Source of the DNA: Polynucleobacter sp. IMCC 30228
GTDB lineage: Bacteria > Pseudomonadota > Gammaproteobacteria > Burkholderiales > Burkholderiaceae
Reading direction: 5' to 3'
Assembly: GCF_021395205.1 (NCBI RefSeq)
Contig: NZ_JAJVCS010000002.1
Span: forward strand, 1 to 64,000
DNA length: 64,000 nt
This document shows positions 45,799 to 64,000 of this stretch, piece after piece; position 1 is the stretch's first letter; the number at the start of each line of letters is the position of its first letter. The notes under the pieces are model-generated. The model had not been told where the DNA came from and did no database searches. It saw nothing but the letters and a program-made list of their open reading frames with translations. The position numbers and the translations under genes were made by a program.

Positions 45799-45915
45799 GC
45801 TTCCTTCTCCAAAAGACCATCATCGAATCGATCCAAATTTCTACTCCAATATATTCCATATAATGGTTTAATCGCTTGACTTAAGCTAAAATCCCTGATT
45901 ATTATGCAAATTATA

Positions 45916-45928: not shown

Positions 45929-45955
45929 CATTTAATCGAATAGGAAATCATCCCC

Positions 45956-49210: not shown

Positions 49211-49866
49211 TAGTTTTCATCCATTACAGCTTGAATGGTGTCCATAATTGAGCGGGGTAAATATTGATTGGCTGGTTGTGTTTCCCATTCGGGCATTAGC
49301 GAATATCCACCGCGTTCTTTAATGGCGATACTGGCTTCTGATAGGGGATCATGCACGTCACCAAAAATACGCGCACCGGTGGGGCAGGCTAATACGCAGG
49401 CAGGTTTACGTTCACTTTCGGGCAAAGTTTTGCTATAGATGCGATCAACGCATAAAGTACATTTAGTCATTACCTGACGTTCTTCGTCGAGCTCGCGTGC
49501 GCCATATGGGCAGGCCCAAGCACAATATTTACAGCCAATGCATTTATCGTAATCAACTAAAACAATGCCATCTTCAGCCCGTTTATAACTTGCCCCAGTA
49601 GGGCATACAGGCACACAAGGGGGATCTTCACAATGCAAACACGACTTAGGAAAATGCACGGTTTCCATTTTTGGAAATGAACCCGCTTCATAGGTTTGTA
49701 CGCGGTTAAAAAAAGTGCCAGTCGGATTTTCACCGTATGCATGCAAATCGGTTAACGGACCAGCTGAGCCTTGGGTATTCCACTCCTTGCAAGAGGTAAC
49801 GCAAGCATGACAACCAACGCAAACATTTAAATCGATGACGAGGGCAAGTTGTTTATTGGTTTTCAT
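49210..49866 (-). CDS. soeB: Four-cluster ferredoxin-like subunit, probable SoeB
   Basis: A 218-residue electron-transfer subunit with four 4Fe-4S cysteine groups: CVGCHACVTSCKEWN, CLHCEDPPCVPVCPTGA, CIGCKYCAWACPYGA and CTLC with CVLACPTGA. It has no signal peptide. It starts four bases inside the end of soeA and overlaps soeC by one base, so the three genes are one operon. It links the molybdenum subunit to the membrane anchor. Confidence 0.87.
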   Translation of the reverse strand: MKTNKQLALVIDLNVCVGCHACVTSCKEWNTQGSAGPLTDLHAYGENPTGTFFNRVQTYEAGSFPKMETVHFPKSCLHCEDPPCVPVCPTGASYKRAEDGIVLVDYDKCIGCKYCAWACPYGARELDEERQVMTKCTLCVDRIYSKTLPESERKPACVLACPTGARIFGDVHDPLSEASIAIKERGGYSLMPEWETQPANQYLPRSIMDTIQAVMDEN

Positions 49867-52763
49867 TGAAACTCCCCAGCATTTTTTGCATTCTTACCTA
49901 AGGGCATACCAGGTACTGTGAAGGCTTTCACTTGTGGCCAAGTTTCTGCAGGTTCACTAGCATCGGCTAAAGCTAATTTGACCCGCACGTCATACCAACC
50001 TGCTTGACCTGTAATGGGATCGGAATTGCTGACAGTAAAGCCGCCTAAGGCCAATTCTTCGGTAATAAGATGGTTCAGTAGGAACCCTTTTTTTGACTCG
50101 TCGGCATTAGCAGCTAAGCTCCAAGCCGACTCTGCTTTGCCAATCGCATTCCAAGTCCAAACTGTGCCTGGGTCAACTGCTTCGGAATGGCGTGCCATGC
50201 ATTTCACTTTGCCCCATTGCGATTCAATCCAAATCCAGGCGCCATCAGCAATGCCTTGATCGGTGGCCGTCTTGGTATTCACAAATAAATAATTATGGCT
50301 ATGAATTTGCCTCAGCCATGCATTTTGGGAATCCCAAGAGTGATACATCGCCATGGGCCGTTGGGTAATTGCGTTTAAATTAAAAGTCGCTAAGTCCGTC
50401 ACTTCTTCTTCGAGTGGGGGATACCAAAATGGTAAGGGATCAAAATATTTTTCAATCCGTTTTTTTAGATGCTCGGGGGGTTTGCGACCTGGGCGCTTAC
50501 CTTGCGCTGCTAAACGAAATTTTTGCAAGATATCGGAATACACCGCAATCATAATCGGATCATTTTTTTGCCGGATCGCATTGGCTTTAGCAAAATCGAG
50601 GTAGCTACGATTCCAATTGCGCATGTAATGATGTTCTTCGGGCATGTGATATTGAAATACACAATTGTTATCGGCGTATTGTTGCCATTGATTTGCATTC
50701 GGCTCGCCGCGCAAACTTTTCTCTCCTTCTTTGCCGCGCCAGCCCGCTAAAAATCCAATGCCAGAATCAGGCGCGGTTTCAAAGCGGGTAATGAAATCGG
50801 TATAGCCAGTAAATTTACGTTGGCCATCTGCGGTTGTAAACGCAGGTAATTTCAGGCGGGAAGCCAATTCAACAAGCACCTCTTGAAAGGGCTTGCATTC
50901 TCCCATCGGCGCCAATACCGGAATACGGACTGAATCTACAGGCCCATCAAATTCCGAGATCGGACGATCGAGCATGCTCATCACGTCGTGACGCTCTAAA
51001 TAAGTTGTATCGGGCAAAACTAGATCTGCAAAATCAACCATCTCCGACTGGAAGGCATCACACACCACTAAGAAAGGAATTTTAAATTCACCATCAGCAT
51101 TTTTCGAATTTAATAACTCACGCACTTGCATGGTATTCATGGTGGAATTCCACGACATATTAGCCATGAAAATCATCAGCGTATCGATGGTGTAGGGATC
51201 ACCTTTAACTGCATTGGTAATCACGTTGTGCATTAAGCCATGTGCTGCTAAGGGGTGCTCCCAAGAATAGGCCTTATCTATGCGTAGGGGTTGCTCATTA
51301 TTATCCAGCGCGAGGTCTTCAGGTTGAGTGGGCCAACCAAGCGGCGCTTTACCAAGCGGGGTATTAGGTTTGACATCAGCCTCAGAAGAGGGTGGTTTGA
51401 CATTGGGCGGTACCTGTCTTGGATAGGGCGCCTTATGGCGAAAGCCACCTGGGCGATCGATGGTGCCTAGCAATGACATTAAGACGGCTAGCCCCCGGGT
51501 CGTTTGAAAACCATTTGAATGAGCCGAAAGACCGCGCATTGCATGAAATGCAACAGGGCGGCCAATCACTTTATCGTGCTCAACACCCCATACGTCAGTC
51601 CACTGAATCGGTAACTCGAAGGCTTGTTCGAAAGCGGCATGCGCCATTTCTTTAGCGAGCTGCCGAATCCGCTCAGCCGCAATACCCGTAATCGAGGCAG
51701 CCCACTCTGGCGTGGTATCAGCAACTTGACGACGCAGTAACTCAAATGCAGGCGCAACTTTTTTACCGGCATGAGGGCCTGCGCCCATGATGTATTCACC
51801 GCTGAGGGCAGGCGATACTCCAGCCTCAAAGCAAGGACGAGCACTATTGGTTTTTTCATCCCACACATATTTATTGTGCGGTAGATCCAGGTTAATTTGC
51901 TCGCTATCGGGATCATACAAAAATAGCCCCTCTTCTGGGCCAGAATCTAAACAAACCAATTGCCCTGAATTACTATAGCGCTGCAAAAATGGGGCATCGA
52001 ACTTCTCCTCACGAATGAGCTCATGCATCAACGCCATAAATAAGGCGCCATCCGTACCAGGTTTAATGGGTATCCATTCATCGGCAATTGCTGAGTAACC
52101 TGTGCGCACTGGATTAATAGAAATAAAGCGGCCGCCGGCACGCTTAAATTTGGATAAAGCAATTTTCATCGGGTTGCTGTGATGATCTTCAGCGGTACCA
52201 ATCATAATAAATAATTTAGCTCGATCTAAATCAGGACCACCAAATTCCCAAAAGCTACCACCGATGGTGTAGATCATGCCTGCAGCCATATTGACAGAAC
52301 AAAAGCCACCATGGGCGGCATAATTTGGCGTACCAAATTGACGCGCAAACAAACCGGTTAAGGCTTGCATCTGATCGCGGCCAGTAAACAGAGCAAATTT
52401 CTTTGGATCGGAAGCACGAATTTTTGCTAAGCGCTCGCTTAAGATTTCAAATACTTGCTCCCAACTAATCGGTTCAAAAGCACCTTCACCCCTAGCACTA
52501 CCGGCTTTACGTAAGAGGGGCTGAGTAATGCGAGCAGGTGATTTTTGCTTCATGATTCCTGCTGAGCCCTTGGCGCAGATCACGCCCTTGTTTAAGGGGT
52601 GATCAGGATTACCATCGATGTAGACGAGTTCGCCCTCGCGCAGGTGGGCGCGAATGCCGCAACGGCAGGCGCACATATAGCAAGTGGTTTTCTTAATTTC
52701 ATCGATTGGCTGTTGCTGACCAATGGGATCGTGAACGGGGGCACTGGAAAAGAGTTTGAACAT
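49863..52763 (-). CDS. soeA: Molybdopterin oxidoreductase, probable SoeA sulfite dehydrogenase
   Basis: A 966-residue catalytic subunit of the DMSO-reductase superfamily. The N-terminal 4Fe-4S motif is C-x2-C-x3-C (CYMCACRCG) with the fourth Cys in GVICAKGSAG, and a Cys in HGGFCSVNMAAGM is the likely molybdenum ligand. The N-terminus (MFKLFSSAPVHDP) has no twin-arginine signal, so the enzyme should face the cytoplasm. That is the distinguishing feature of SoeABC, which oxidises cytoplasmic sulfite to sulfate. Sulfite is exactly what SuyAB and Xsc, encoded upstream, release. The assignment rests on topology and context; other respiratory molybdoenzymes are possible. Confidence 0.82.
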   Translation of the reverse strand: MFKLFSSAPVHDPIGQQQPIDEIKKTTCYMCACRCGIRAHLREGELVYIDGNPDHPLNKGVICAKGSAGIMKQKSPARITQPLLRKAGSARGEGAFEPISWEQVFEILSERLAKIRASDPKKFALFTGRDQMQALTGLFARQFGTPNYAAHGGFCSVNMAAGMIYTIGGSFWEFGGPDLDRAKLFIMIGTAEDHHSNPMKIALSKFKRAGGRFISINPVRTGYSAIADEWIPIKPGTDGALFMALMHELIREEKFDAPFLQRYSNSGQLVCLDSGPEEGLFLYDPDSEQINLDLPHNKYVWDEKTNSARPCFEAGVSPALSGEYIMGAGPHAGKKVAPAFELLRRQVADTTPEWAASITGIAAERIRQLAKEMAHAAFEQAFELPIQWTDVWGVEHDKVIGRPVAFHAMRGLSAHSNGFQTTRGLAVLMSLLGTIDRPGGFRHKAPYPRQVPPNVKPPSSEADVKPNTPLGKAPLGWPTQPEDLALDNNEQPLRIDKAYSWEHPLAAHGLMHNVITNAVKGDPYTIDTLMIFMANMSWNSTMNTMQVRELLNSKNADGEFKIPFLVVCDAFQSEMVDFADLVLPDTTYLERHDVMSMLDRPISEFDGPVDSVRIPVLAPMGECKPFQEVLVELASRLKLPAFTTADGQRKFTGYTDFITRFETAPDSGIGFLAGWRGKEGEKSLRGEPNANQWQQYADNNCVFQYHMPEEHHYMRNWNRSYLDFAKANAIRQKNDPIMIAVYSDILQKFRLAAQGKRPGRKPPEHLKKRIEKYFDPLPFWYPPLEEEVTDLATFNLNAITQRPMAMYHSWDSQNAWLRQIHSHNYLFVNTKTATDQGIADGAWIWIESQWGKVKCMARHSEAVDPGTVWTWNAIGKAESAWSLAANADESKKGFLLNHLITEELALGGFTVSNSDPITGQAGWYDVRVKLALADASEPAETWPQVKAFTVPGMPLGKNAKNAGEFQ

Positions 52764-52865: not shown

Positions 52866-53555
52866 CTAGCTAGAGGCTTTAACTAAGCGTAACTTAGGAT
52901 AATTCGCTTTAGCGCCATCAAGGAAATTTTCAATTGATCGGGTTAAGTAGCCTTCAAAATTAATTTTAGTCTCGTGGTTAAAAATATATTTACGGGTAGC
53001 ATAAGCAAAGAAACTACCATGTAAGACCCAAACAAATTCTCGCTCATCATCGGAGATTGGCCCCCAGCTTTTATCATCACCGCAGAGGGCTCTTAAGGCC
53101 ATGCAAACTGGATCAATCAGCCGTTGACGAATCATCTTGAGGTATTTCTGATTCATGCCAGTGCCCGCTAAACCTGAATATAAATACACCCGAATCCACC
53201 GGCGCGAGAAGCTATCCTCAAAATATTGTTGATAAAAGGTTACGAGGCGCTTTTTTAGGGGAATAGTTTGGTTTTCTAGTAACGCATCCCACTCTTTTTG
53301 CCAAGAGTCTAAGAAGATGATTTCGAACACTTCTTCCATCAAGACCTGTTTTGAAGGGAAGTAGCGGTAGAGTAGGGGCTGGGTAATGCCTAGGCGCTCA
53401 GACAGTTCCCTAGTTTTGCCAGTAAAGCCTAGTTCAGCAAAGTAATCGATAGCCCCCGCCAAAATGAGCTCGCGCCGCTGACTCGGCGCCATTCTGATGC
53501 GCGATTTTTGTGGCGCCTTTTTGGCTGGTTTGCGTTTAGCAACTTTAAGGGGCAT
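52866..53555 (-). CDS. TetR-family transcriptional regulator
   Basis: A 229-residue regulator with a Lys-rich N-terminal extension and then the TetR helix-turn-helix (RRELILAGAIDYFAELGFTG with SERLGITQPLLYRYFPSKQV, about residues 28-72), followed by a ligand domain. It is divergent from fhs with 243 bases between them, which contain a large inverted repeat around a promoter-like sequence. It is also upstream of soeA in the same direction (102 bases), so it could affect both the sulfite dehydrogenase and the fhs-Rieske operon. The inducer is unknown. Confidence 0.88.
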   Translation of the reverse strand: MPLKVAKRKPAKKAPQKSRIRMAPSQRRELILAGAIDYFAELGFTGKTRELSERLGITQPLLYRYFPSKQVLMEEVFEIIFLDSWQKEWDALLENQTIPLKKRLVTFYQQYFEDSFSRRWIRVYLYSGLAGTGMNQKYLKMIRQRLIDPVCMALRALCGDDKSWGPISDDEREFVWVLHGSFFAYATRKYIFNHETKINFEGYLTRSIENFLDGAKANYPKLRLVKASS

Positions 53556-53798: not shown

Positions 53799-55469
53799 AT
53801 GCCAAGTGATATCGAAATAGCTCAAAAAGCGACCATGAAAAAGATCGCCGGAATTGCCAAGGAGCGCTTAGGCATTCCTGAAGACTCGCTAGAGCCATTT
53901 GGGCATTACAAGGCCAAGGTCTCATTAGCTTATTTAGATACCTTAAAAAACAAAAAAGACGGCAAACTTATCTTAGTAACAGCAATTAGTCCAACCCCCG
54001 CAGGCGAAGGTAAAACCACCACTACGGTTGGCTTGGGCGATGCGCTGAACCATATCGGCAAAAAAGCCATGATTTGTTTGCGTGAACCCTCTCTTGGCCC
54101 AGTGTTTGGCGTAAAGGGCGGGGCAGCCGGGGGAGGCTACGCCCAAATCGTGCCCATGGAAGATATTAATTTGCATTTCACGGGCGATTTTTCGGCGATT
54201 GCCTTGGCTAATAACTTGCTAGCGGCTTTAATTGATAACCATATTTATCATGGCAATACCTTGGGTATTGATGTGCGTCGTATTCAATGGAAGCGGGTAG
54301 TGGATATGAATGACCGCGCTTTACGCTCCATTACTGCTGGCTTGGGAGGCCCTGGTAATGGCTACCCCCGTGAAGATGGCTTTGATATTGTGGTTGCCTC
54401 AGAGATCATGGCAATTTTCTGTTTGGCCACGTCAATCGAGGATTTAAAAGAGCGTTTGTCAAAAATTGTGGTTGGCTATACCCGCGATTTAAAGCCCGTT
54501 TTAGCAAAAGATCTGAATGCGCATGGTGCCATGACGGTATTGCTTAAAGATGCGCTGGCACCTAATTTGGTGCAAACCTTAGAAAATAATCCAGCCTTTG
54601 TTCATGGTGGCCCCTTTGCCAATATTGCCCATGGTTGTAATTCAGTTATTGCCACTCAAGCCGCATTGAAGTTAGCGGATTATGTAGTGACAGAGGCAGG
54701 GTTTGGTGCGGACTTGGGCGCTGAAAAGTTTATTGATATTAAATGCCGTAAGTCAGGTTTGCGTCCTGCGGCTGTCGTGATCGTAGTAACAGTGCGCGCG
54801 ATGAAGTATCACGGTGGAGTTGATGTTGCCAATTTAACTAAAGAAGACTTAATTGCCTTAGATAAGGGTTTGGTCAATTTGGAGCGTCACGTTGAAAACA
54901 TTACTCAGGTCTATAACTTACCCTGCGTTGTTTCGATCAATCAATTCTTGAGTGATACCGATGCAGAAATCGATTTGATTCGTAAGCGGATGGATCGTTT
55001 TGGAGCAAAAGTAGTAGTGGCTTCGCATTGGGCCCATGGCGGTAAAGGTGCGGCAGATCTAGCCAAGATTGTTGTTGACCTTTGCGAATCTGATAAAAAA
55101 ATGCAGTTTGTTTACGAAGAAGAAGATACGCTTTGGGAAAAAATTAATAAAATCGCAAAACGGGTTTACCGTGCTGGGGAAGTAAATGCGGATTCAAAAG
55201 TCCGTGCGCAAATTGCCAGTCTGCAGGAGCAGGGTTATGGGCATTACCCAGTATGTGTAGCCAAAACTCAAAGTTCTTTTTCAACCGATGCAAAATTACG
55301 TGGCGCTCCAGAGGGACACACCATTACTGTGCGTGAAGTTCGCTTGGCTGCTGGCGCTGAATTTATCGTCATGGTTTGTGGTGACATCATGACCATGCCT
55401 GGTTTACCTAAGGTACCTTCGGCAGAAAAAATTGACTATATTGACGGCAAAGTAACAGGCCTTTTTTAA
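53799..55469 (+). CDS. fhs: Formate-tetrahydrofolate ligase
   Basis: ATP-dependent synthesis of 10-formyl-THF from formate and THF, reversible in the direction of ATP and formate. At 556 residues it is the standard length. The nucleotide loop is [18 protein letters not shown], followed by [20 protein letters not shown] and [14 protein letters not shown]. The ATG follows AGAGG. It is the first gene of the cluster behind the TetR site, 57 bases before the Rieske alpha gene, with no terminator between. Its placement with an oxygenase and a PanB-like enzyme suggests use in a catabolic C1 route in addition to housekeeping. Confidence 0.96.
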
Positions 55470-55526
55470 TCAGCAATCTTTTATCAGCGTAACTTCAATC
55501 AATTTATCTTAATTAGGGAGCGAAAT

Positions 55527-56747
55527 ATGTCTCGTAATTCTGCCGAATGGCTGCAAACCCCAAGTTTTCCGAACTCACATTTTGTCGACAGCCGCATTTA
55601 CACCGATGAAGGTTTATTTAAAGAAGAGCAAGAAAAAATCTTTAACAAAAGCTGGATTATTGCTTGCCATGAGAGCGAGTTAGTTAATGCTTTCGATTAT
55701 CGTACCTTTAGCCATCCAGGCGGAGCGCCCTTAATTATTGTGCGCGGTGAAGATATGCAGGTCCGCTCTTTTTACAATATTTGCCCACACCGTGGCAACA
55801 CGTTGTTGTACGATCCGGTGGGCAATGCGAAGCGCATCACTTGTATTTTCCATGCTTGGATGTTTGATACCAAAGGTAAGTGTATAGAAATTTCACGTGG
55901 CACACAGGGCTACCAAGATCGTTATACCTGTGAAAATGCTGGCTTGAGAGAAGTTAGAACTGAAATTGGTTACGGTGGCTTCGTTTGGGTTAACGTTGAT
56001 GATCAAGCGCCAACACTAAAAGAATATATCGGCGATTCGATGAATATGCTGGATGATAATTTATCGATGCCATTAGAAGTATTCCACTACCACAAGGCTA
56101 TCGTCGATACGAACTATAAATTGTGGCACGACACTAACAGTGAGTTTTATCACGATTACATGCACTACTTCAATAAAGCTACAGGCATGATGCAGCCTGG
56201 TTATTTTGATCGCAAATATACCGGTTATCCCAATGGTCACGCAACGGTAGGTTCAATGGAAGTAAAGTATGACGCCTATACCAAAGGTAGCAAAGAACGT
56301 GCTGTAGGTTGGCCTGGGCTTGCGCCAGGGGGCTGGATCTTGATTGATATCTTTCCTGGGATGACATTTAATTTACGCACGTCGGTTTTACGCATGGATA
56401 CCGCTATTCCACTCGGCCCTAATAAATTGATTATTGAATTTAGGGGTCTTGCACCGAAAAGCGATACTCCAGAACAGCGTGCTGAACGTATTCATGATCA
56501 CAATGTCATTTGGGGTCCATTTGGCCGTAATCTGCATGAAGATTTGCTTGGCGTTCATGGTCAAGGCAGAGCGATGCGCGATGGGACTGATAGCAAGTGG
56601 GTGATTCATGGTCGCGAGGAAAATTCGACGATTCATGATGAAGTTGGTATGCGTCATTTTTATGCAGAGTGGAGCAAAAAAATGCAACGGCCCGCTTTTA
56701 ATCCGCTTGGCGATAACAAGTTAAATGCTGTGAAAGAAGTTGCTTAA
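55527..56747 (+). CDS. Rieske non-heme iron oxygenase alpha subunit
   Basis: A 406-residue oxygenase alpha subunit. The Rieske cluster is C86-x-H88 and C106-x2-H109 (ICPHRGNT and CIFHAW). The mononuclear iron site is in HDTNSEFYHDYMHYF, with E206, H209 and H213 as the likely residues, and a third acidic ligand probably near NLHEDLLGV. Most family members have Asp in the bridging position and a longer gap between the two His. GAGCGAAAT is a modest ribosome binding site. With beta, reductase and ferredoxin genes following, this is a complete hydroxylase or demethylase system; the substrate is unknown. Confidence 0.9.
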   Translation: MSRNSAEWLQTPSFPNSHFVDSRIYTDEGLFKEEQEKIFNKSWIIACHESELVNAFDYRTFSHPGGAPLIIVRGEDMQVRSFYNICPHRGNTLLYDPVGNAKRITCIFHAWMFDTKGKCIEISRGTQGYQDRYTCENAGLREVRTEIGYGGFVWVNVDDQAPTLKEYIGDSMNMLDDNLSMPLEVFHYHKAIVDTNYKLWHDTNSEFYHDYMHYFNKATGMMQPGYFDRKYTGYPNGHATVGSMEVKYDAYTKGSKERAVGWPGLAPGGWILIDIFPGMTFNLRTSVLRMDTAIPLGPNKLIIEFRGLAPKSDTPEQRAERIHDHNVIWGPFGRNLHEDLLGVHGQGRAMRDGTDSKWVIHGREENSTIHDEVGMRHFYAEWSKKMQRPAFNPLGDNKLNAVKEVA

Positions 56748-56780
56748 CTTACAGACTGCTTTATTTTTGAGAGAGTAATA

Positions 56781-57239
56781 ATGGATGATCGTATACAAAT
56801 TTCAGAGCTTATTTATAAAAGTTTTTTGACTTTAGACGATTTGAATTTTGCCGGTTTTATAGCCTTATGTGATCCTCAGTACCACTACAAAATTACGGCT
56901 TATAGCCCTGAAATACGTAAAGAGATGATTTGGCTAGAGGAGTCGCGTGATTCTCTCAAGTTGTTATTTGATAACTTACCAAAACATAATAGCGATCACT
57001 CACGCCTCTCTCGCTTAGGGAATGTGTACTTAGTCAGTAAAGCAGGCGCCCATGAGTGGGATGCAGTCACTTTTCTAGAAGTTTTTAGAACTACCCTAGA
57101 TGGGGGTGCAACCGAATTATTTGCGGTGGCTAAGGTGTATGACAAGATTACTGAAGCCAACAAAGAATTTAAATTACTGAGTCGTGAAATTAAGATGGAG
57201 ACCCGCATGTTTGGCTTTGGTCACCATATTCCTTTTTAA
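56781..57239 (+). CDS. Ring-hydroxylating oxygenase beta subunit
   Basis: A 152-residue NTF2/SnoaL-fold small subunit. Family-like features are the N-terminal helix pair IQISELIYKSFLTLDDLNF, the strand segment YKITAYSPEIRKEM and DHSRLSRLGNVYLVSK, and the C-terminal FKLLSREIKMETRMFGFGHH. It packs under the alpha trimer to form an alpha3-beta3 hexamer and is usually structural. It starts 33 bases after the alpha gene, following GAGAG. Its presence argues against the alpha-only quaternary-amine oxygenases. Confidence 0.82.
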   Translation: MDDRIQISELIYKSFLTLDDLNFAGFIALCDPQYHYKITAYSPEIRKEMIWLEESRDSLKLLFDNLPKHNSDHSRLSRLGNVYLVSKAGAHEWDAVTFLEVFRTTLDGGATELFAVAKVYDKITEANKEFKLLSREIKMETRMFGFGHHIPF

Positions 57240-57257
57240 GGCTTGATAAGTACCACG

Positions 57258-58307
57258 ATGAAAGTTGAATTAATCGGCGCGGGCGAAACTACCCAAGTTT
57301 ATGAGTCTAAAGCGAGCAGCCGCCTTTTATATTCTGGGTTAAAAGAGGGTGCGGATGTGCCCTATGAGTGTGCGACAGGAACCTGTGGTACTTGTAAGGT
57401 CAAGCGCATTTCTGGAGAATTTAGTTGGTTATGGGCTGAAGCTCCGGCACGTGCTCTGCTGAAATCGACGGATGATTTTTTATTATGCCAGTGTGCGGCC
57501 TCAACTGATTTAAAAATCGAGGTTCGTTCAAAATTAAAGCCGCTTAAGGCAGTCGACCAAAGGCCACAATGGTTAACCGGTGAAATTTATGCTGCGGCTA
57601 CGGTTGCCCCAGGCGTAATGACTTTTTCGGTAAAACTTTCACAGCCAATCTCTTTTATGCCAGGGCAATTTATGGTCTTAGAGTTTGCAGGGATACAAGG
57701 TGGACGAGCATGGTCAATGACCAATCAGGCCAAATTCACGGATACGCTAGATTTTGTCATTAAAAAGAAACCCCAAGGACTCTTATCTGATTACTTATTT
57801 GAGCAAGAAAATGTAATTGGGCTGAAGGCTAATTTATTTGGCCCCATTGGCAAAGCAGTTTACGAGGGTGAGTTAGATCGAGATTTAGTCTGTATAGCAG
57901 GCGGGACTGGCATGGCTGGAATGATGTCGATTTTGGCAGCCTTCATCGCCTCTGGGGCATACCTGCGTAATCGTGCTGATGTATTTTTTGGTGTCCGCAC
58001 TCCCGCCGATTTATTTTTTGTCAGCGAGCTAAGACAATTTGTCGAGCAGTCAAAAGGCGCTCTAAAGGTCTTGGTAGCCTTTTCAGATGGCCCTGCGAGC
58101 GCTGCATTAATCGCAGCAAACCCACTGCTAACCTTCGATCAGGGTTTTGTACATGAAGTGGCCATGCGCGTGATGGAAGGACAATTTACCCCCAAAACAA
58201 GAGCCTATTTGGCAGGACCGCCTCCCTTAGTAGATGGTGCCCTAAGAATGCTGTTATTAAAAGCGCGCATACCAGCAACAGAAATTTTATACGACAAATT
58301 TGGTTAA
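57258..58307 (+). CDS. Oxygenase reductase (2Fe-2S, FAD, NAD)
   Basis: A 349-residue NADH-dependent reductase. A plant-type 2Fe-2S domain comes first (C-x4-C-x2-C in CATGTCGTCK and a fourth Cys in LLCQCAAS), then an FAD domain whose usual R-x-Y/F-S motif reads RAWSM, and an NAD domain with CIAGGTGMAGMMS and LAGPPPLVDGAL. I start at the ATG at 57258; a TTG at 57243 gives five more residues but overlaps the only purine-rich site. It would pass electrons to the Rieske ferredoxin encoded next. Confidence 0.88.
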   Translation: MKVELIGAGETTQVYESKASSRLLYSGLKEGADVPYECATGTCGTCKVKRISGEFSWLWAEAPARALLKSTDDFLLCQCAASTDLKIEVRSKLKPLKAVDQRPQWLTGEIYAAATVAPGVMTFSVKLSQPISFMPGQFMVLEFAGIQGGRAWSMTNQAKFTDTLDFVIKKKPQGLLSDYLFEQENVIGLKANLFGPIGKAVYEGELDRDLVCIAGGTGMAGMMSILAAFIASGAYLRNRADVFFGVRTPADLFFVSELRQFVEQSKGALKVLVAFSDGPASAALIAANPLLTFDQGFVHEVAMRVMEGQFTPKTRAYLAGPPPLVDGALRMLLLKARIPATEILYDKFG

Positions 58308-58356
58308 TATCTGTCAAATTTTATGAAAATAATTCTCTACATTTATTGGAAATAGC

Positions 58357-58665
58357 ATGGCTTCAACTTTTATCTGTAAAAAATCGGATATTCCGCAAGA
58401 TGGATTTAAGGTTTTTGATGTTGCTGATGGCAAATTACTGATTGCCAATTCAGATGATGGCTACTATGGCTACAACGGCTATTGCCCACACCAAGAAGTT
58501 TGCCTTGCGGAAGCCCTTTATGACGGTAAGGTTTTAACTTGTCATGAGCACTTGTGGCAGTGGGACATTGTTTCTGGCGAGCCGCAGGGCTTGGCTGAAG
58601 GGCCTTTAGTTACAAAGCCAATTGAGCAAATTAATGATGAAATTCACTTGCTAGACGCCGCATAA
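58357..58665 (+). CDS. Rieske-type ferredoxin
   Basis: A 102-residue Rieske ferredoxin with C-x-H (YCPHQEVCLAEAL) and C-x2-H (LTCHEHLWQWD) cluster motifs and the compact beta fold of BphF/CarAc-like proteins. It carries electrons one at a time from reductase to the alpha subunit. Together the four genes 55527-58665 form a three-component oxygenase. It starts 49 bases after the reductase gene. Confidence 0.92.
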   Translation: MASTFICKKSDIPQDGFKVFDVADGKLLIANSDDGYYGYNGYCPHQEVCLAEALYDGKVLTCHEHLWQWDIVSGEPQGLAEGPLVTKPIEQINDEIHLLDAA

Positions 58666-58732
58666 TCACCTATTTTTACGTATTTAAAAGAACTCTTGCA
58701 GAACTAAGGGATAACACCGATTCAGAATTTTA

Positions 58733-58777
58733 TAAATTCCTATATTTTCCAATGGTAGGCTTATTTATAGGAATTTA
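58733..58777. promoter_or_regulatory. 12-bp inverted repeat upstream of the second binding protein
   Basis: TAAATTCCTATA (58733-58744) and TATAGGAATTTA (58766-58777) are perfect complements 21 bases apart, in the 158-base gap between the ferredoxin and binding-protein genes. The left arm also lies in a smaller hairpin, GAATTT-TAT-AAATTC. An operator pair or internal promoter control site is likely; AT-richness makes a terminator unlikely. Confidence 0.5.
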
Positions 58778-58823
58778 AATAACGACCAGTTAATCAAACT
58801 GGGTAATAAATTGGGAGACACGA

Positions 58824-59948
58824 ATGAAATTTGCATCAATTAAAAAATATAGCTTGAAATATTTGTTGGCTGGGCTTGTAAGTGCTGGCTGTATTTCGCC
58901 TGGTTTAGCCCAAACAATTGATTATGGAAAAGTGGGCTCGCCAGTTAATTTAGTGGTGGGCTATCAACCCTATTACACAGAGGCTTGGTCGGGCGTGATT
59001 ATGCGCGGTAAAAAGTTTTACGAAAAATATTTACCCAAAGGCTCCACAGTTGAGTTTCAAGTCGGCTTGCAGGGCGCTATTATTGTAAATAATATGTTGG
59101 CGGGTAAACAACAAATTGGTTACGTTGGCGATATGCCTGCGATTGTTTCCACTACCAAGCCAGAGGTTGCCGATATTCGTCTTGTTGGTGTGTTGGGTAT
59201 GGGCAAGGATATGTGCAATATTGTTTTAGTAAGGCCTGATGCGCCAGATTTTAAAACGCCCAAAGATGCCTTTCAATGGTTAAACGGTAAAATTATGGCC
59301 TCACCGAAGGGCTCTTGTACCGACAGGTTTGTGCAAGATGCTTTCAAAAAAGAAAATGTTAAACCTGAAAATTACCTGAACCAAAATATTGAAGTAATTA
59401 CCAGTAACTTTAGAGCGAAAAAAATTGATGGCGCTGCAATTTGGGAGCCAACCGCCTCTAAATTAGTTGAAGAAGGTTTGGCGAAGCGGGTTGCCTCGGG
59501 TTTTACGGTTGGCTTAAGCGACGGCGGTTTTTTAACCATGCGTGACGATTTAATTAAAGCTAGGCCTGACGTTGCCCAAGCTTGGTTGAACGCTGAGCTA
59601 GATGCGCAACTCTTTTTGGCTGATGAGAAAAATGCTAAAGAGGTAATTGATATTGCTATGGCCCAACTTACTGGCTTTACCCGTTCATCTATTTCTAAAT
59701 CGGTGTATGGTCAAAGCCCAGATCAACTGGGTAGTAAAGTACGTTTTAATTTGCCATTTACCTTTACTCCTGATGTTCGCTCACTACTTACGGGGGCCAC
59801 AACGTTTTTAAAAGATATGAAGGCAATTAATGTTTCTGAATTACGCAGTGACGCGATCGTTTCCAAGTTTGCTGACGAAGCTTTGAAGGCGAGAAATTTA
59901 AAAGCGCCAATTGGTGATGTAGCAGTAATTAATCCGGCACCAATTTAA
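58824..59948 (+). CDS. ABC transporter periplasmic binding protein, NitT/TauT type (second system)
   Basis: A 374-residue receptor with a signal peptide (residues 1-30, cleavage near GLAQ) and a SsuA/TauA-like fold: VNLVVGYQPYYTEAWSG, QIGYVGDMPAIVST, MASPKGSCTDRFVQDAFK and IDGAAIWEPTASKLVEEG. GGGAGAC precedes the ATG. A strong terminator follows it and separates it from the permeases, a layout that gives receptor excess. The ligand is presumably the substrate of the neighbouring Rieske oxygenase; no specific compound can be read from sequence. Confidence 0.85.
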   Translation: MKFASIKKYSLKYLLAGLVSAGCISPGLAQTIDYGKVGSPVNLVVGYQPYYTEAWSGVIMRGKKFYEKYLPKGSTVEFQVGLQGAIIVNNMLAGKQQIGYVGDMPAIVSTTKPEVADIRLVGVLGMGKDMCNIVLVRPDAPDFKTPKDAFQWLNGKIMASPKGSCTDRFVQDAFKKENVKPENYLNQNIEVITSNFRAKKIDGAAIWEPTASKLVEEGLAKRVASGFTVGLSDGGFLTMRDDLIKARPDVAQAWLNAELDAQLFLADEKNAKEVIDIAMAQLTGFTRSSISKSVYGQSPDQLGSKVRFNLPFTFTPDVRSLLTGATTFLKDMKAINVSELRSDAIVSKFADEALKARNLKAPIGDVAVINPAPI

Positions 59949-59958
59949 TTTTTATGCG

Positions 59959-59988
59959 ACCCCCTTTGTAATTAAAGGGGGTTTTTTT
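59959..59988 (+). terminator. Rho-independent terminator after the binding-protein gene
   Basis: ACCCCCTTT (59959-59967) pairs with AAAGGGGGT (59974-59982) over 9 bp with a six-base loop and a seven-T run. It begins 11 bases after the receptor stop and 80 bases before the permease gene on the same strand, so downstream genes rely on read-through or a second promoter. Confidence 0.93.
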
Positions 59989-60038
59989 CGAGTATTAATT
60001 TATCAAATGATTTTTAGTTTACCGATTATTGCTATTTC

Positions 60039-60920
60039 ATGACGAATTCAAATGATTCAAATCCAACAGTAAAGCAGCAGCGGCTGAGTTTCGAAATTCG
60101 CGAAGGCTCGTTGTTGGCGAAAATTTTAAGCCCACGCCTTTTTTTGATGCTGGTAGGTTTCATTATTTTTTTAGGTTTTTGGCACTTATCCGTTGAGGTT
60201 TGGCGGTTACCACGTTTTGCACAAATGCCAGCTTTGCGCACCGTTGTTACCGAGATACTCAGCCCCAATCCCACTTATGGCATTTCTATTTTTGTCGGCG
60301 AATACTATCAACATATTCTTGCCAGTTGCCTGCGTGTTTTCATTGCTTTTGCGTTGGCGACAATTTTAGGTGTGCCGCTTGGGCTTTTCTTAGGTTGGTC
60401 GACGAAATTTAGGGAATATGTCTTTCCGGTGTTTGAAATGTTGCGACCCATACCGATCTTAGCTTGGGTGCCACTGGCCATCATTATGTTTACTAGCCTA
60501 GAGGCGCCAGTCATTTTCTTGGCTTTTCTAGCTTCATTTTTTGTGACCGCCCTAAATACCATGCTCGGTGTCGAATCGATTGATGAGTCTTATTTCAGAG
60601 CTGCAAAGTGTTTAGGTGCTAAGGACTACCAAGTCTTTTTAAATGTGGTGATTCCAGGGGCTACGCCGTTTATTTTTACGGGCTTACAAATTTCGATTGG
60701 CGTTTGTTGGTTTTCTCTAGTGGCAGCTGAAATGGTCTCGGGGCAGTTTGGACTTGGCTACATTATTAATACTTCATATACCAATGTACGTTATCCAACC
60801 ATCATTATTGGGATGGTGACTTTAGGGTTTATCGGTTACTTAACGAGCGCAATGGTGCGTGCGGTTGGTAAGCGATTGATGCAATGGCGTATGCGTGAGT
60901 TAGCGCTATCTGGAAATTAA
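60039..60920 (+). CDS. ABC transporter permease (second system, 1)
   Basis: A 293-residue SsuC/TauC-type permease with six hydrophobic segments, an extended N-terminal cytoplasmic stretch, and the coupling loop YFRAAKCLGAKDYQVFLNVVIPGATPFIFTGLQI. Conserved FEMLRPIPILAWVPLAIIMF lies before it. It begins after the internal terminator and is followed by an ATPase gene three bases later. Its partner is probably the other permease at 61776, giving a heterodimeric channel. Confidence 0.9.
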   Translation: MTNSNDSNPTVKQQRLSFEIREGSLLAKILSPRLFLMLVGFIIFLGFWHLSVEVWRLPRFAQMPALRTVVTEILSPNPTYGISIFVGEYYQHILASCLRVFIAFALATILGVPLGLFLGWSTKFREYVFPVFEMLRPIPILAWVPLAIIMFTSLEAPVIFLAFLASFFVTALNTMLGVESIDESYFRAAKCLGAKDYQVFLNVVIPGATPFIFTGLQISIGVCWFSLVAAEMVSGQFGLGYIINTSYTNVRYPTIIIGMVTLGFIGYLTSAMVRAVGKRLMQWRMRELALSGN

Positions 60921-60923
60921 GCA

Positions 60924-61775
60924 ATGAATGAATCTGTAAAAACAAGCCAACATATGGGTCGTGGTCAAATTTCAATTGATAACGTCGTCAAAATTTATGA
61001 TCCTGAAGGTGCTGCAGTGATGGCAGTCGATCATTGCTCGCTGGAAATCGCAGCTGGTGAAATTTGCATGATTGTTGGCCCATCAGGTTGCGGTAAAACT
61101 ACTCTATTGAATGCGATAGCAGGCTTTCATAGTATTAATAGTGGCAGCATTACGCTGGATGGAAAACTTCTCTGTGGCCCCGGTAAGCCCCAAGCAACAC
61201 CCGGCTCTGATCGCATCGTAGTCTTTCAAAACGGCGCTTTATTTCCCTGGAAAAATGTGCTGGATAACATGATGTTTGGGCCTGTAATGGCCGGCAAAAT
61301 GGGTATCAAAGAAATTAAAGAAAAAGCCTTTTCGATGATGGCTGATGCAGGGCTCTCGGGTACTGAAAATAATTTTCCTGGTGAGCTTTCCTCAGGCGTT
61401 CGGCGCCGCGTTGAAATAGTGCGCGCGTTAATGAACGACCCGAGTGTGTTGTTGTTAGATGAACCCTATCGCGCGCTAGATTCATTAACAAAATCGGTAA
61501 TGCATGAAGCTCTGTTGGATATTTATTATAAAAATAAAGTTACTATATTTTTTATTACTCATGATTTACAAGAGGCTTTATTTTTGGGCAATAAAGTAGC
61601 GATTATGACAAGTCGCCCTTGTAAGCCAAAAAAGGTATTAACCGTTGATATTCCGTATCCAAGAAGTTATAGCGTAGTAACCGATCAACGCTTTAGAGAT
61701 TTAATGGAAGAGACTAGTGATTTAGTGCATGAAGAGGCGAAAAAATCATTCGCTGCTGGCGAAAGGGAGGGCTAG
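60924..61775 (+). CDS. ABC transporter ATPase (second system, 1; degenerate signature motif)
   Basis: A 283-residue ATPase of the SsuB/TauB class. Walker A GPSGCGKTT, Q-loop VFQNGALFPW, Walker B VLLLDEPYRALD with catalytic Glu, and H-loop FITHDLQEA are intact. The signature motif, normally LSGGQ or LSGGM, reads LSSGV at residues 155-159. The second ATPase of this system has a good signature but lacks the H-loop His, so the two look like an asymmetric heterodimer. It lies between the two permeases and touches the next gene (stop TAG, next start two bases on). Confidence 0.9.
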   Translation: MNESVKTSQHMGRGQISIDNVVKIYDPEGAAVMAVDHCSLEIAAGEICMIVGPSGCGKTTLLNAIAGFHSINSGSITLDGKLLCGPGKPQATPGSDRIVVFQNGALFPWKNVLDNMMFGPVMAGKMGIKEIKEKAFSMMADAGLSGTENNFPGELSSGVRRRVEIVRALMNDPSVLLLDEPYRALDSLTKSVMHEALLDIYYKNKVTIFFITHDLQEALFLGNKVAIMTSRPCKPKKVLTVDIPYPRSYSVVTDQRFRDLMEETSDLVHEEAKKSFAAGEREG

Positions 61776-62597
61776 TTGATGATTCGCTCAGTGCAAAAAT
61801 TCTTTTTTAATCGCTCTTCCCGTCGAGCCACGATTGCAATCATTGTCTTTCTGTTGTTTTGGGAAACCTGTTCACGTTCAATGGGCTGGTTCGGTTTTCA
61901 AGTGCCGTGGATTGGCAAAATTCCCGCTCCCTCTGCTGTTATTACAGCCTGGATTCCATTGCTTACCGATAGCGGCTATTGGACGAGTTGGTACTTAAGT
62001 TCTAAACGCGTCTTCACCGGTTTCTTAATGGCCATGATTCTCGGTATTCCTTTCGGATTATTGTTAGCGATTAATCGGACGGCCTATGGAATCATGTTTC
62101 CAACTTTTGAGGTATTACGTCCCATACCACCTTTGGCATGGGTGCCTGCAGCGATTATTTTCTGGCCTACTGCCGAAATGTCCATTGCATTCGTCACCTT
62201 TTTAGGCGCCTTTTATACGATTGTGATTAATGTGCTTGGTGGAGCGCAATCGATTGACCAGCGTTTTTTCCAGGCTGCCCGCTCAATGGGTTCATCACAA
62301 TGGGATATTTTTAAACGAATTGTCTTGCCAGCTACGGTACCCTCCATTGCGGTTGGTGCTTCAGTGGGAATGGGTATTACCTGGGAAGTAGTAGTTGCAG
62401 CTGAAATGATTTCTGGCGGCGGTTCAGACGGCGGTGGTAAGGGCGGTGGGCTTGGCTTCTTTATTTGGGACTCTTATTTAGGGGGCTCGTACCAACAAAT
62501 TGTAGTGGGAATGATTTCGATTGGTATTGCGGGATATTTATCAAGCTCACTAATTCGCGTCTTAGGTGATCATTTCTCAAAATGGACTCGCAGGTAA
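61776..62597 (+). CDS. ABC transporter permease (second system, 2)
   Basis: A 273-residue SsuC/TauC-type permease. Features are VPWIGKIPAPSAVITAWIPL, FEVLRPIPPLAWVPAAIIFW and the coupling loop FFQAARSMGSSQWDIFKRIV. A glycine-rich insert (SGGGSDGGGKGGGLGF, about residues 208-223) replaces the short turn seen at that point in the first permease, probably a flexible periplasmic or membrane-edge loop. The start is TTG at 61776 or ATG at 61779. It is followed directly by the second ATPase. Confidence 0.9.
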   Translation: MMIRSVQKFFFNRSSRRATIAIIVFLLFWETCSRSMGWFGFQVPWIGKIPAPSAVITAWIPLLTDSGYWTSWYLSSKRVFTGFLMAMILGIPFGLLLAINRTAYGIMFPTFEVLRPIPPLAWVPAAIIFWPTAEMSIAFVTFLGAFYTIVINVLGGAQSIDQRFFQAARSMGSSQWDIFKRIVLPATVPSIAVGASVGMGITWEVVVAAEMISGGGSDGGGKGGGLGFFIWDSYLGGSYQQIVVGMISIGIAGYLSSSLIRVLGDHFSKWTRR

Positions 62598-62612
62598 TTG
62601 GGTGCTAACGCT

Positions 62613-63485
62613 ATGACAAATATCAATATGAAAAATAAAGCTACAGGCGAAATTGTGCTCAAGTCAGTGAGTAAATCTTATGGCTACGGTGACAGCCTTA
62701 AAGAAGTGATTAAAGATTGCTCGCTCACTATTGAGTCTGGAAAGTTAACGGTCATGATTGGCCCTTCAGGATGCGGTAAAAGTACCCTAATTCGTTTGTT
62801 AGCGGGCTTTGAAAAACCAACTAGCGGCGCTTTAACTATAGATGGCAAGTCGATTACTGGGCCAGGCAAAGATCGCTTAGTGGTATTTCAAGAATCGGCT
62901 TTATTTCCTTGGCAAACTACCGCAGATAATATTATGTTTGGTCCGATTGCGCGGGGTGAAAATACCAAAGAATCGCGCGATTTGGCCGGCTTTTTGTTAA
63001 ATAAAGTAGGCTTAAGTCAATTTAAAGCAAAATTTCCAAATCAATTATCGGGTGGCATGCAAAGGCGTTGTGAATTAGCGCGGGCTTTGGTTAATTTACC
63101 CGAGGTGATGGTGCTCGACGAACCATTTCGTGGTTTAGATGAAATGAGTAAAGAGTTAATGTGGGAATACTATGCAAATTTGTATGAAGAAAATCGACAT
63201 ACAAATTTTTTTGTCACTACCGATATTGACGAAGCTATTTTTTTGGCTGATCGCTTAATCATTATGACAAATATTCCTACTCAAGTAGCGCACGTTATCG
63301 AGGTTGATATTCCTAGGCCTAGAAGGCTAAAAAGCTTATTCGAGCTAGACCGTGCAAATGAAATAAAAATGGAAGCCTTAAAGATTTTGCATACTGAGGC
63401 AATGAAATCATTTAAGAGTGGAAGTAAGGCGGCTGCAGATTTTATTGACGCCTATTCAAAACGGGTTGAGCCGCTTGCGTCTTAA
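62613..63485 (+). CDS. ABC transporter ATPase (second system, 2; H-loop His replaced)
   Basis: A 290-residue ATPase. Walker A GPSGCGKSTLIRLLAGF, Q-loop VFQESALFPW, signature LSGGMQRRCELARA and Walker B VMVLDEPFRGLD are normal, but the H-loop reads FVTTDIDEA in place of F-x-T-H-D, so the switch His is Thr203. I start at the ATG at 62613; a TTG at 62598 adds five residues. It ends 45 bases before the PanB-like gene on the same strand, with no terminator between. Confidence 0.9.
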   Translation: MTNINMKNKATGEIVLKSVSKSYGYGDSLKEVIKDCSLTIESGKLTVMIGPSGCGKSTLIRLLAGFEKPTSGALTIDGKSITGPGKDRLVVFQESALFPWQTTADNIMFGPIARGENTKESRDLAGFLLNKVGLSQFKAKFPNQLSGGMQRRCELARALVNLPEVMVLDEPFRGLDEMSKELMWEYYANLYEENRHTNFFVTTDIDEAIFLADRLIIMTNIPTQVAHVIEVDIPRPRRLKSLFELDRANEIKMEALKILHTEAMKSFKSGSKAAADFIDAYSKRVEPLAS

Positions 63486-63530
63486 TTTTATAGTGTGGTT
63501 TGTAATTTATGTTAATGAGGAGATTTAGAA

Positions 63531-64000
63531 ATGTCTGATACACCAGTAAAAAGAAAAAAAATGACCATTCCGATGTTGAATGCGAAGAAAAAGAATAAAG
63601 AGCCGATCGTTCAGCTTGCAGTTTATGACTATGAGAATGCCATCATTGCCGATCGTTTAGGTATTGATATTCTTTGTGTTAGTGATACTGGTGGCATGGT
63701 GCTATTTGGCCATGAATCAACCACTTCAGTGTCATTTGAAGAAGTCATGTTTATGGCTCAAGCAGTAAAGCGTGGCTCGCAATATGGTTTACGCATGGTT
63801 GATATGCCCTACATGAGTTTTCATCTTTCCGAGCAACAGGCTGTTGATAATGCTGCTCAATATGTTGCAAAAGCTGGTGCCGAAGTGATGAAGTGCGAAG
63901 GCAATATTCATCACGCCCGCAATATTGAAGCAATTATTAAAGCTGGTATCCCTGTGCAAGGCCATATCGGTATTTGCCCAATGAGAATGCCTCAATTAGG
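63531..64000 (+). CDS. PanB-like ketopantoate hydroxymethyltransferase-family enzyme (cut by window edge)
   Basis: An open frame of at least 156 residues running off the right edge, starting at an ATG eight bases after GAGGAG. It aligns with PanB along its whole visible length: AVYDYENA for TAYDY, CVSDTGGMVLFGHESTTSVS with the metal Asp, RMVDMPYMSF with the second metal Asp, the Lys-Glu pair in EVMKCEGN, and IPVQGHIGICP with the His. PanB moves a C1 unit from methylene-THF to ketoisovalerate. Differences such as SDTGG for GDSLG and CPMR for TPQ, and its place at the end of a catabolic operon, suggest a specialised paralogue rather than the pantothenate enzyme. Confidence 0.82.
   Translation, partial: MSDTPVKRKKMTIPMLNAKKKNKEPIVQLAVYDYENAIIADRLGIDILCVSDTGGMVLFGHESTTSVSFEEVMFMAQAVKRGSQYGLRMVDMPYMSFHLSEQQAVDNAAQYVAKAGAEVMKCEGNIHHARNIEAIIKAGIPVQGHIGICPMRMPQL

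What the first reader, a model, noticed from the sequence alone, without database searches (positions are those of the whole stretch)
53799..64000. Rieske oxygenase cluster with two folate C1 enzymes and its own importer
fhs, a four-component Rieske system, an ABC importer with two permeases and two ATPases, and a PanB-like enzyme are consecutive on one strand behind one TetR control region. Fhs and PanB both handle THF-bound C1 units. A consistent model is import of a compound, oxidative demethylation or hydroxymethyl formation, and retro-aldol transfer of the C1 unit to THF by the PanB-like enzyme, with Fhs recovering formate and ATP. I know of no described pathway with this set.
Basis: inference. 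Interest (0 to 1): 0.8.

Follow-up and report, generated by a model that had tools for sequence, protein, structure and literature searches.

The report
Methanesulfonate-degradation gene cluster with folate enzymes
A freshwater-type bacterium carries what looks like a gene set for importing and burning methanesulfonate, a one-carbon sulfur compound; the set is largely known already, but the job of its altered PanB-type enzyme (a vitamin B5 enzyme relative) is not.

Summary
The genes are all there: fhs, oxygenase alpha and beta, reductase, Rieske ferredoxin, SsuA-like binding protein, two permeases, two ATPases, a PanB-like enzyme, with a divergent TetR gene. The run continues past the window with TauE/SafE, a GcvT-like protein, SoxC-type sulfite dehydrogenase and cytochrome c. 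It is not an undescribed set: by annotation, every gene but fhs and the regulator is listed in the published methanesulfonate (msm) region of Filomicrobium. The oxygenase lies in the MsmA family but has the short Rieske spacer (17, not 26), a form a 2015 paper calls unproven; besides the spacer only two positions separate the forms across 71 sequences. The PanB-like protein is a separate clade with intact catalytic residues and many fixed changes around them. In class and phylum samples of 369 and 398 genomes it occurred in four genomes in all (this one included), always within about 21 kb of msm genes. Best reading: methanesulfonate is oxidised to sulfite plus a C1 unit that is oxidised on tetrahydrofolate, Fhs yielding formate and ATP. 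The PanB-like and GcvT-like proteins probably pass the C1 unit on; this is unproven. Links of PanB-like with Fhs (for) and Fae (against) do not survive correction for kinship.

The parts
52866..53555 (-). TetR-family regulator, divergent from fhs
   Evidence: PF00440; same place in L010 and L012 at 76% identity
53556..53798 (.). divergent control region; inverted repeat TTGATAAATA / TAATTATCAA at 53689-53698 and 53732-53741 lies in the block conserved with L010 and L012 (candidate operator)
   Evidence: function inferred
53799..55469 (+). fhs, formate-tetrahydrofolate ligase; only copy found in the genome
   Evidence: NF010030 905.9 bits; single genome match
55527..56747 (+). MsmA-like oxygenase alpha subunit, Rieske motif CXH-X17-CXXH
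56781..57239 (+). MsmB-like oxygenase beta subunit
   Evidence: no family hit; AlphaFold model and Foldseek to terephthalate dioxygenase and HcaF beta subunits
57243..58307 (+). MsmD-like reductase (2Fe-2S, FAD, NAD domains)
58357..58665 (+). MsmC-like Rieske ferredoxin
   Evidence: PF00355
58824..59948 (+). MsmE-like periplasmic binding protein, SsuA-like
   Evidence: TIGR01728 92 bits, below its cut-off 163.5; homologues at 44-61% beside long-spacer msmA
59958..59983 (+). intrinsic terminator-like hairpin inside the gene run
   Evidence: also in L008, L009, L010, L012, L060
60039..60920 (+). ABC permease 1 (MsmF-like)
   Evidence: PF00528
60924..61775 (+). ABC ATPase 1 (MsmG-like)
   Evidence: PF00005
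61776..62597 (+). ABC permease 2 (MsmH-like)
   Evidence: PF00528
62598..63485 (+). ABC ATPase 2
   Evidence: PF00005
63531..64000 (+). PanB-like protein (PanBL), continuing past the window to contig position 64397
   Evidence: PF02548 263 bits; own clade, fixed changes
48275..52763 (-). neighbour: membrane subunit, 4Fe-4S subunit and molybdopterin subunit of a DMSO-reductase-family oxidoreductase (SoeABC-like sulfite dehydrogenase by recall, not tested); homologue of the Mo subunit also upstream in L010 and L012
   Evidence: PF00384 etc. for the Mo subunit; L010/L012 82-88%; no NCBIfam cut-off reached; the other two subunits named from their sequence only
45956..47764 (+). neighbour: xsc, sulfoacetaldehyde acetyltransferase
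   Evidence: TIGR03457 1058 bits, cut-off 676.4

Best explanation
The stretch is a methanesulfonate-type (msm) catabolic cluster with a short-spacer oxygenase, in a Polynucleobacter-like bacterium. The SsuA-like importer brings in methanesulfonate. The four-component Rieske oxygenase hydroxylates it, giving sulfite and formaldehyde, or their adduct hydroxymethanesulfonate. Sulfite is exported (TauE/SafE) and oxidised (SoxC-type dehydrogenase with cytochrome c, and perhaps the neighbouring Mo enzyme). The C1 unit is moved onto tetrahydrofolate with the help of the GcvT-like and PanB-like proteins, oxidised as methylene- to formyl-THF, and released by Fhs as formate with ATP; a formate dehydrogenase elsewhere finishes the oxidation. 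Shown by sequence: gene identities, family placement, co-occurrence, intact catalytic residues. Inferred: the substrate, the direction of Fhs, and the reactions of the PanB-like and GcvT-like proteins.
For: Alpha subunit sits inside the MsmA family (71-row clade, SH-aLRT 100, quick tree); 103 positions are near-invariant (97% or more) over 45 short-spacer and 26 long-spacer rows and, the spacer apart, only 2 are fixed differently between them. The gene set is the one listed for the Filomicrobium msm region in print. Gamma MAGs L072 and L075 combine a long-spacer MsmA with the reductase-ferredoxin-importer order of the window, PanBL, GcvT-like and TauE genes. Xsc and SoxC-type neighbours reach their curated cut-offs. 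PanBL (all hits 64% identity or more) is in 24 of 50 genomes chosen for this oxygenase, against 3 of 369 class-level genomes and 2 of 398 phylum-level genomes, own genome counted in both; the three others (G502, G661, G889) all have msm genes on the same contig, within about 21 kb. Fhs is in 26 of 27 PanBL genomes and 16 of 27 without. Own genome: one Fhs match, in this cluster, no Fae, no glutathione formaldehyde dehydrogenase at E<=1e-150, one formate dehydrogenase alpha over cut-off.
Against: The short spacer (X17) fails the X26 signature proposed for proven methanesulfonate monooxygenases, and the authors of PMC4433239 warn that short-spacer 'MsmA' is unproven. Two genomes (PBA: L017 and L059; RH-27jun17-3: L060, a fragment 99% like the window, and L058) carry both kinds, which would be odd if they were fully redundant. 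26 of the 50 oxygenase genomes had no PanBL match (one of them, L046, has a fragment at a contig end). The Fae contrast (2 of 27 with PanBL, 9 of 27 without, p=0.04; in the short-spacer clade 1 of 13 against 9 of 11, p=0.0005; G417 with the fragment counted as without) rests on related genomes: on independent pairs of the tree it shows nothing, and the Fhs link, though all one way, cannot reach significance. Glutathione formaldehyde dehydrogenase shows no pattern (14 of 27 with PanBL, 15 of 27 without, counted).
Confidence: 0.72

Rival explanations
1. The short-spacer oxygenase acts on a different small organosulfur compound (another sulfonate, a sulfinate or a sulfone), so the cluster shares logic and ancestry with msm but not its substrate.
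For: Spacer of 17 in the window and in 48 of 74 loci where it could be read; two genomes hold both kinds; PMC4433239 discussion; PMC5023235 passage: methanesulfonate-use genes among the silent modules in Methyloversatilis FAM5, in a study of growth on methanol and methylamine.
Against: Only 2 fixed differences outside the spacer; shared importer type and shared PanBL/GcvT-like/TauE genes with long-spacer clusters; L072/L075 mix both.
Confidence: 0.2
2. One reading: demethylation of methylated amines, methoxyaromatics or branched hydroxy acids with retro-aldol C1 transfer by the PanB-like enzyme.
For: PanBL keeps the catalytic residues of PanB; Fhs goes with it.
Against: Sulfonate-type importer, TauE/SafE, SoxC-type dehydrogenase, xsc nearby; MsmA family placement; published msm gene set.
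Confidence: 0.04
3. The PanB-like gene is a spare pantothenate gene that supplies coenzyme A and sits here by chance.
For: It is a PF02548 member with intact catalytic residues and just passes the TIGR00222 panB cut-off (214.2 bits, cut-off 207.55), though not that of PRK00311 (242.6, cut-off 272).
Against: 24 of 27 PanBL genomes have at least one further PanB homologue; PanBL is one clade (SH-aLRT 100) with 17 positions fixed differently from 22 canonical rows; oxygenase or other msm genes are on the same contig in 23 of the 27 other PanBL genomes, the remaining four being on separate draft contigs.
Confidence: 0.04

Closest known systems
msmABCD/msmEFGH methanesulfonate region of Filomicrobium strain Y (KM879220; PMC4433239 Table 1)
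   Same: by annotation: alpha, beta, ferredoxin, reductase; SBP, permease, ATPase, permease plus a further ATPase; TauE/SafE, GcvT, PanB, SoxC, cytochrome c
   Different: Rieske spacer 17 instead of 26; order A-B-reductase-ferredoxin instead of A-B-ferredoxin-reductase; one strand instead of divergent msm operons; fhs first in the run; TetR instead of LysR; two further ABC genes of Filomicrobium absent. Sequences not compared directly
Short-spacer 'MsmA' genes of Methylibium and Methyloversatilis (L014, L016)
   Same: alpha subunit 83% and 79% identical, same oxygenase and importer order
   Different: no PanBL, but Fae present; extra cNMP-binding domains on ferredoxin and permease
Ketopantoate hydroxymethyltransferase PanB (E. 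coli 1m3u)
   Same: family; D45, D84, K112, E114, H136, E181 kept in all 30 rows, 27 distinct genes
   Different: T23A, L42C, G44S, L47G, H68M, Q142M, G201S, I202L, Q211V, V214I, F229H and others fixed; separate clade
GcvT-fold folate proteins (T-protein, DmdA, TMAO demethylase GcvT domain)
   Same: folate-binding domain and the conserved Asp, 14 of 14 rows
   Different: a His and two Asn that three T-proteins share are Phe, Arg and Gly in all 14 rows

Membership tests
Methanesulfonate monooxygenase MsmABCD | alpha subunit with CXH-X26-CXXH Rieske motif (signature proposed in PMC4433239) | tested here: not met
   window has X17; 26 relatives have X26
Methanesulfonate monooxygenase MsmABCD | alpha subunit in the MsmA sequence family | tested here: met
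   71-row clade, SH-aLRT 100; 50-59% identity to X26 rows. A proven MsmA sequence was not at hand; the X26 rows stand for it
Methanesulfonate monooxygenase MsmABCD | four components: alpha, beta, Rieske ferredoxin, reductase | tested here: met
Methanesulfonate monooxygenase MsmABCD | oxidises methanesulfonate | not testable with these tools
   no experiment; unproven for short-spacer forms according to PMC4433239
MsmEFGH importer | SBP, permease, ATPase, permease next to msmABCD | tested here: met
   same order in Filomicrobium
PanB (ketopantoate hydroxymethyltransferase) | catalytic and Mg-ligand residues | tested here: met
   six of six positions in 30 of 30 rows; roles of the residues recalled
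PanB (ketopantoate hydroxymethyltransferase) | other residues fixed in canonical PanB, and place in the canonical clade | tested here: not met
   17 positions differ; separate clade
PanB (ketopantoate hydroxymethyltransferase) | curated NCBIfam scores | tested here: inconclusive
   TIGR00222 214.2 bits, cut-off 207.55: passed; PRK00311 242.6, cut-off 272: not passed
GcvT (aminomethyltransferase) | curated score for GcvT | tested here: not met
   PRK00389 167.3 bits, cut-off 300; TIGR00528 135.1, cut-off 235.85
Formate-tetrahydrofolate ligase | curated score reached | tested here: met
   905.9 bits, cut-off 652
Xsc sulfoacetaldehyde acetyltransferase (neighbour) | curated score reached | tested here: met
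   1058 bits, cut-off 676.4

The most novel reading that the evidence does not exclude
The PanB-like protein is a new folate enzyme made for methanesulfonate breakdown: a hydroxymethanesulfonate (or formaldehyde):tetrahydrofolate hydroxymethyltransferase. Hydroxymethanesulfonate, the first product of the oxygenase and a stable formaldehyde-sulfite adduct, would take the place of ketopantoate at the Mg2+. Sulfite would be the leaving group in place of the keto-acid enolate, and the C1 unit would go straight to methylene-THF, so that free formaldehyde never builds up and Fae is not needed.
Probability: 0.2. Interest if true: 0.75.

Novelty: new variant of a known kind. Interest (0 to 1): 0.42.

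Why it matters
Methanesulfonate is a major oxidation product of marine dimethyl sulfide, so who consumes it bears on the sulfur cycle. The cluster puts a probable pathway into a Polynucleobacter-like bacterium. It also points to two altered folate enzymes that travel with the oxygenase and have no assigned reaction. That makes an open question testable: how bacteria without the Fae/methanopterin route deal with the C1 unit from methanesulfonate.

Tried and rejected
NCBIfam and Pfam gave no name for the beta subunit, so it was settled by model and fold search. A plasmid search with PanBL gave 134 records, all under 60% identity (the 20 listed 34-36%), so no PanBL. Two plasmid records with long-spacer msmA show no PanB gene in the listed stretch: Paraburkholderia graminis PHS1 and Methylobacterium nodulans; PLSDB tables are incomplete. 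An anti-correlation of PanBL with Fae looked strong by Fisher test but fails on independent pairs, so I do not lean on it. Promoter-like sites are no more frequent than in shuffles (30 against 32.1), and terminator-like sites likewise (18 against 17.4); only the 59958-59983 hairpin is backed, by its recurrence. A search for further conserved neighbours of PanBL gave only regulators (LysR; an NtrC-type regulator and a histidine kinase) and an ABC-2-type protein, no metabolic clue. The PanBL model (mean pLDDT 80.4) was not searched further: it would only repeat the family assignment. 'Pocket' for the changed PanBL positions is an inference; I had no coordinates of a PanB structure. Literature searches for methanesulfonate with monooxygenase, glycine cleavage and tetrahydrofolate, with panB and hydroxymethyltransferase, and for hydroxymethanesulfonate with tetrahydrofolate found no paper in the held library; subscription journals are mostly not held.
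Full report
What is there. The window is contig C9, positions 1-64000, of a 2.38 Mb genome of 16 contigs (99.99% complete). The genus is Polynucleobacter by its relatives: the oxygenase hit L009 is a MAG titled Polynucleobacter meluiroseus, and a genome rated same genus has its fhs and oxygenase matches at the same contig positions (G816 against G399/L009). From 53799 to the window end and on to contig position 68356, the genes on the + strand form one run: fhs, oxygenase alpha, beta, reductase, Rieske ferredoxin, binding protein, permease, ATPase, permease, ATPase, PanB-like, TauE/SafE, GcvT-like, SoxC-type sulfite dehydrogenase, cytochrome c. Gaps are 0-158 bp, and the last two genes overlap. 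A TetR gene stands divergently in front. A hairpin with a T run sits behind the binding-protein gene at 59958-59983. My stem finder reports such an element at this junction in 10 of 40 loci, among them all five of the same genus (L008, L009, L010, L012, L060), in L010 with another stem sequence, so here it is probably real. It would let the binding protein be made in excess over the permeases. One transcript for the whole run is likely but not shown.

What it is. A scan of one genome per species with the alpha subunit gave 79 loci. Their Rieske motifs fall into two kinds: spacer 17 in 48 loci and the window, spacer 26 in 26 loci, 5 not readable. Spacer 26 is the proposed mark of proven methanesulfonate monooxygenase (PMC4433239: abstract, passages, sections 15 and 18 seen). 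That paper also names short-spacer relatives in Methylibium, Methyloversatilis, Ralstonia, Rhodocyclaceae and Thiobacillus as unproven. The quick tree of 75 rows (5 rows under 370 aa dropped) puts the window with 42 other short-spacer rows (SH-aLRT 97) inside a family of 71 rows (100) that also holds all 26 long-spacer rows; two deep short-spacer rows, L049 and L053, stand apart, and the long-spacer rows fall into two groups whose order relative to the short-spacer clade is unresolved. Over 45 short-spacer rows (window included, the four outgroup rows left out) and 26 long-spacer rows 103 positions are near-invariant (97% or more), and only two (Y83, V193) are fixed differently (at 93% and 90%); the EFYHDYMH stretch, the probable mononuclear-iron motif, is the same in the window and the rows compared, L014, L047, L059 and L072. 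So the active site is most likely the same. I do not file the enzyme as methanesulfonate monooxygenase in the strict sense, because the spacer test is not met; I say that it most likely works like one.

The gene set. Table 1 of PMC4433239 lists, in a bacterium isolated on methanesulfonate, TauE/SafE, GcvT, 3-methyl-2-oxobutanoate hydroxymethyltransferase (PanB), SoxC, SoxD, two ABC genes, a further ATPase, MsmH, G, F, E and MsmA, B, C, D. The cluster here holds the same set, the two ABC genes apart, plus fhs and another regulator. This is a comparison of names and order; the Filomicrobium sequence was not at hand. Two gamma MAGs, L072 and L075, carry a long-spacer MsmA together with reductase, ferredoxin and importer in the window's order (43-78% identity), PanB-like, GcvT-like and TauE genes, which ties the two kinds together. 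Xsc at 45956-47764 shows that the surroundings are a sulfonate region.

How widespread. In the genus 7 of 186 genomes have the alpha subunit; in the family sample 3 of 398, own genome counted in both. Fhs is in 7 of 61 genomes of the genus, so it too is an accessory gene here. fhs stands 30-280 bp in front of the oxygenase in L010, L011, L012, L019, L025 and L027, 581 bp in front in L064, and elsewhere in the locus in L031 (a fragment at the contig end), L041, L046 and L078: 11 of 79 loci, many of them cut short. fhs and PanBL lie on one contig within 15 kb in 9 of 28 PanBL genomes (G000, G401, G406, G410, G416, G433, G445, G502, G889). G889, met in the phylum sample, has fhs, PanBL, long-spacer msm genes, importer and a SorA/SoxC-like gene in 19.5 kb.

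The PanB-like protein (PanBL). I took 50 of the oxygenase-bearing genomes; 24 have PanBL at 64-99% identity. L046 (G417) has a 45-residue fragment at a contig end that this count misses. In class and phylum samples PanBL was found in 3 of 369 and 2 of 398 genomes, own genome counted in both, and the three other carriers all have msm genes on the same contig within about 21 kb. PanBL is one clade (SH-aLRT 100, quick tree) apart from canonical PanB and from a second paralogue. Against 22 canonical rows, six residues known in E. coli PanB (roles recalled) as Mg ligands and catalysts are kept in 30 of 30 rows (27 distinct genes; three genes were entered twice). Seventeen other positions that are fixed in canonical PanB are fixed to another residue, among them T23, L42, G44, L47, H68, Q142, G201, I202, Q211, V214 and F229 (one residue each in 30 of 30); several lie next to the catalytic ones in the sequence. 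That they line the substrate pocket is my inference. 24 of 27 PanBL genomes have at least one other PanB homologue. The window's PanBL just passes one NCBIfam panB cut-off and fails the other. So it is most likely a PanB-type C1 enzyme with another substrate, not a spare pantothenate gene.

The GcvT-like protein. A homologue was found in 15 of 22 PanBL stretches at E<=1e-4, mostly next to TauE and PanBL. It keeps the folate-site Asp (role recalled) in 14 of 14 rows (one row under 230 aa was left out) but has Phe, Arg and Gly where three T-proteins have His, Asn and Asn. It scores below the GcvT cut-offs.

C1 route in this genome. Fae: none. Glutathione-dependent formaldehyde dehydrogenase: none at E<=1e-150. 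Fhs: one match, in this cluster. Formate dehydrogenase alpha: one over cut-off on C13. Other formaldehyde enzymes were not searched for. That favours the folate route with Fhs working towards formate and ATP. Over 54 genomes Fhs goes with PanBL (26 of 27 against 16 of 27; the one exception, G398, has its contig broken exactly at the oxygenase start) and Fae goes against it (2 of 27 against 9 of 27; in the short-spacer clade 1 of 13 against 9 of 11; G417 counted as without PanBL). But relatedness inflates these numbers: on independent pairs of the oxygenase tree the Fae contrast vanishes, and the Fhs link (about 3 pairs for, 0 against, 1 level) is too small to test. Glutathione formaldehyde dehydrogenase is equally common on both sides (14 and 15 of 27). 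Many of these genomes are drafts or MAGs, so absences are soft.

Mechanism and its limits. Best reading: methanesulfonate enters, is hydroxylated to hydroxymethanesulfonate, which is formaldehyde plus sulfite in equilibrium (recalled chemistry); the C1 unit goes to tetrahydrofolate and on to formate; sulfite is exported and oxidised. Which of PanBL and the GcvT-like protein does the C1 transfer, or whether PanBL builds a hydroxymethyl keto acid instead, cannot be told from sequence. The boldest reading that the data allow is that PanBL takes the C1 unit straight from hydroxymethanesulfonate, with sulfite as leaving group in place of the keto-acid enolate.

Against my reading. The spacer test is failed. 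Two genomes hold both oxygenase kinds (PBA in L017 and L059; RH-27jun17-3 in L058 and L060, the latter a fragment). 26 of 50 oxygenase genomes gave no PanBL match. In the papers seen here, expression is reported only as silent methanesulfonate-use genes in Methyloversatilis, in a study of methanol and methylamine growth (PMC5023235, passage). 'Methanesulfonate oxidation' is named as a variable trait of the freshwater genus Zwartia (PMC12381374, passage). I saw passages only of PMC5068391, PMC6794327 and PMC4814558.

Verdict. It is a variant of a known kind, with one open and testable question: the reaction of the PanB-like enzyme.

Noticed in passing
L014 12776-13504 and 14874-16208; also L016, L020, L026, L041, L072: In relatives of this cluster the Rieske ferredoxin and the first ABC permease are each fused to a cyclic-nucleotide-binding (PF00027) domain: 12 of 12 proteins from 6 chosen loci. 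By open-frame length, 35 of 45 loci of the short-spacer clade have a ferredoxin extension and 31 of 38 a permease extension (counted; four of the 45 are too short to read the spacer); the window and its same-genus relatives lack both. Control of electron transfer and of import by the same kind of small-molecule domain would be unusual; one paper search with four terms found nothing.
   Followed up: partly
L006 6805-7686 (contig C10): A third PanB homologue in this genome sits in a branched-chain-type ABC operon next to a PanE-like gene (named from the sequence). In its group the Mg ligand D84 is Cys in 5 of 9 rows and E114 is Gln in 6 of 9, both so in the own copy; probably not a normal PanB.
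   Followed up: partly
window 38843-47764: Sulfonate neighbours: a protein similar to L-sulfolactate dehydrogenase (211.6 bits, below the cut-off of 500), a 2-hydroxyacid dehydrogenase, an altronate-dehydratase-type protein (SuyB-like by recall) and Xsc over cut-off; with a Pta-like gene at contig 68400-69314 (named from the sequence) this looks like a second, C2/C3-sulfonate pathway.
   Followed up: partly
L017/L059 and L058/L060: Two genomes (Burkholderiaceae bacterium PBA; MAG RH-27jun17-3) carry both a short-spacer-type and a long-spacer MsmA-type oxygenase (L060 is a fragment).
   Followed up: no
L122 10684-13042 and other PanBL stretches: Regulators beside PanBL differ: an NtrC-type response regulator in L118, L120, L122, L123, L134 and a histidine kinase in L120, L121, L122, L134; a LysR gene in L124, L127, L128, L129, L131, L133, L137; the window has TetR before fhs.
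   Followed up: no
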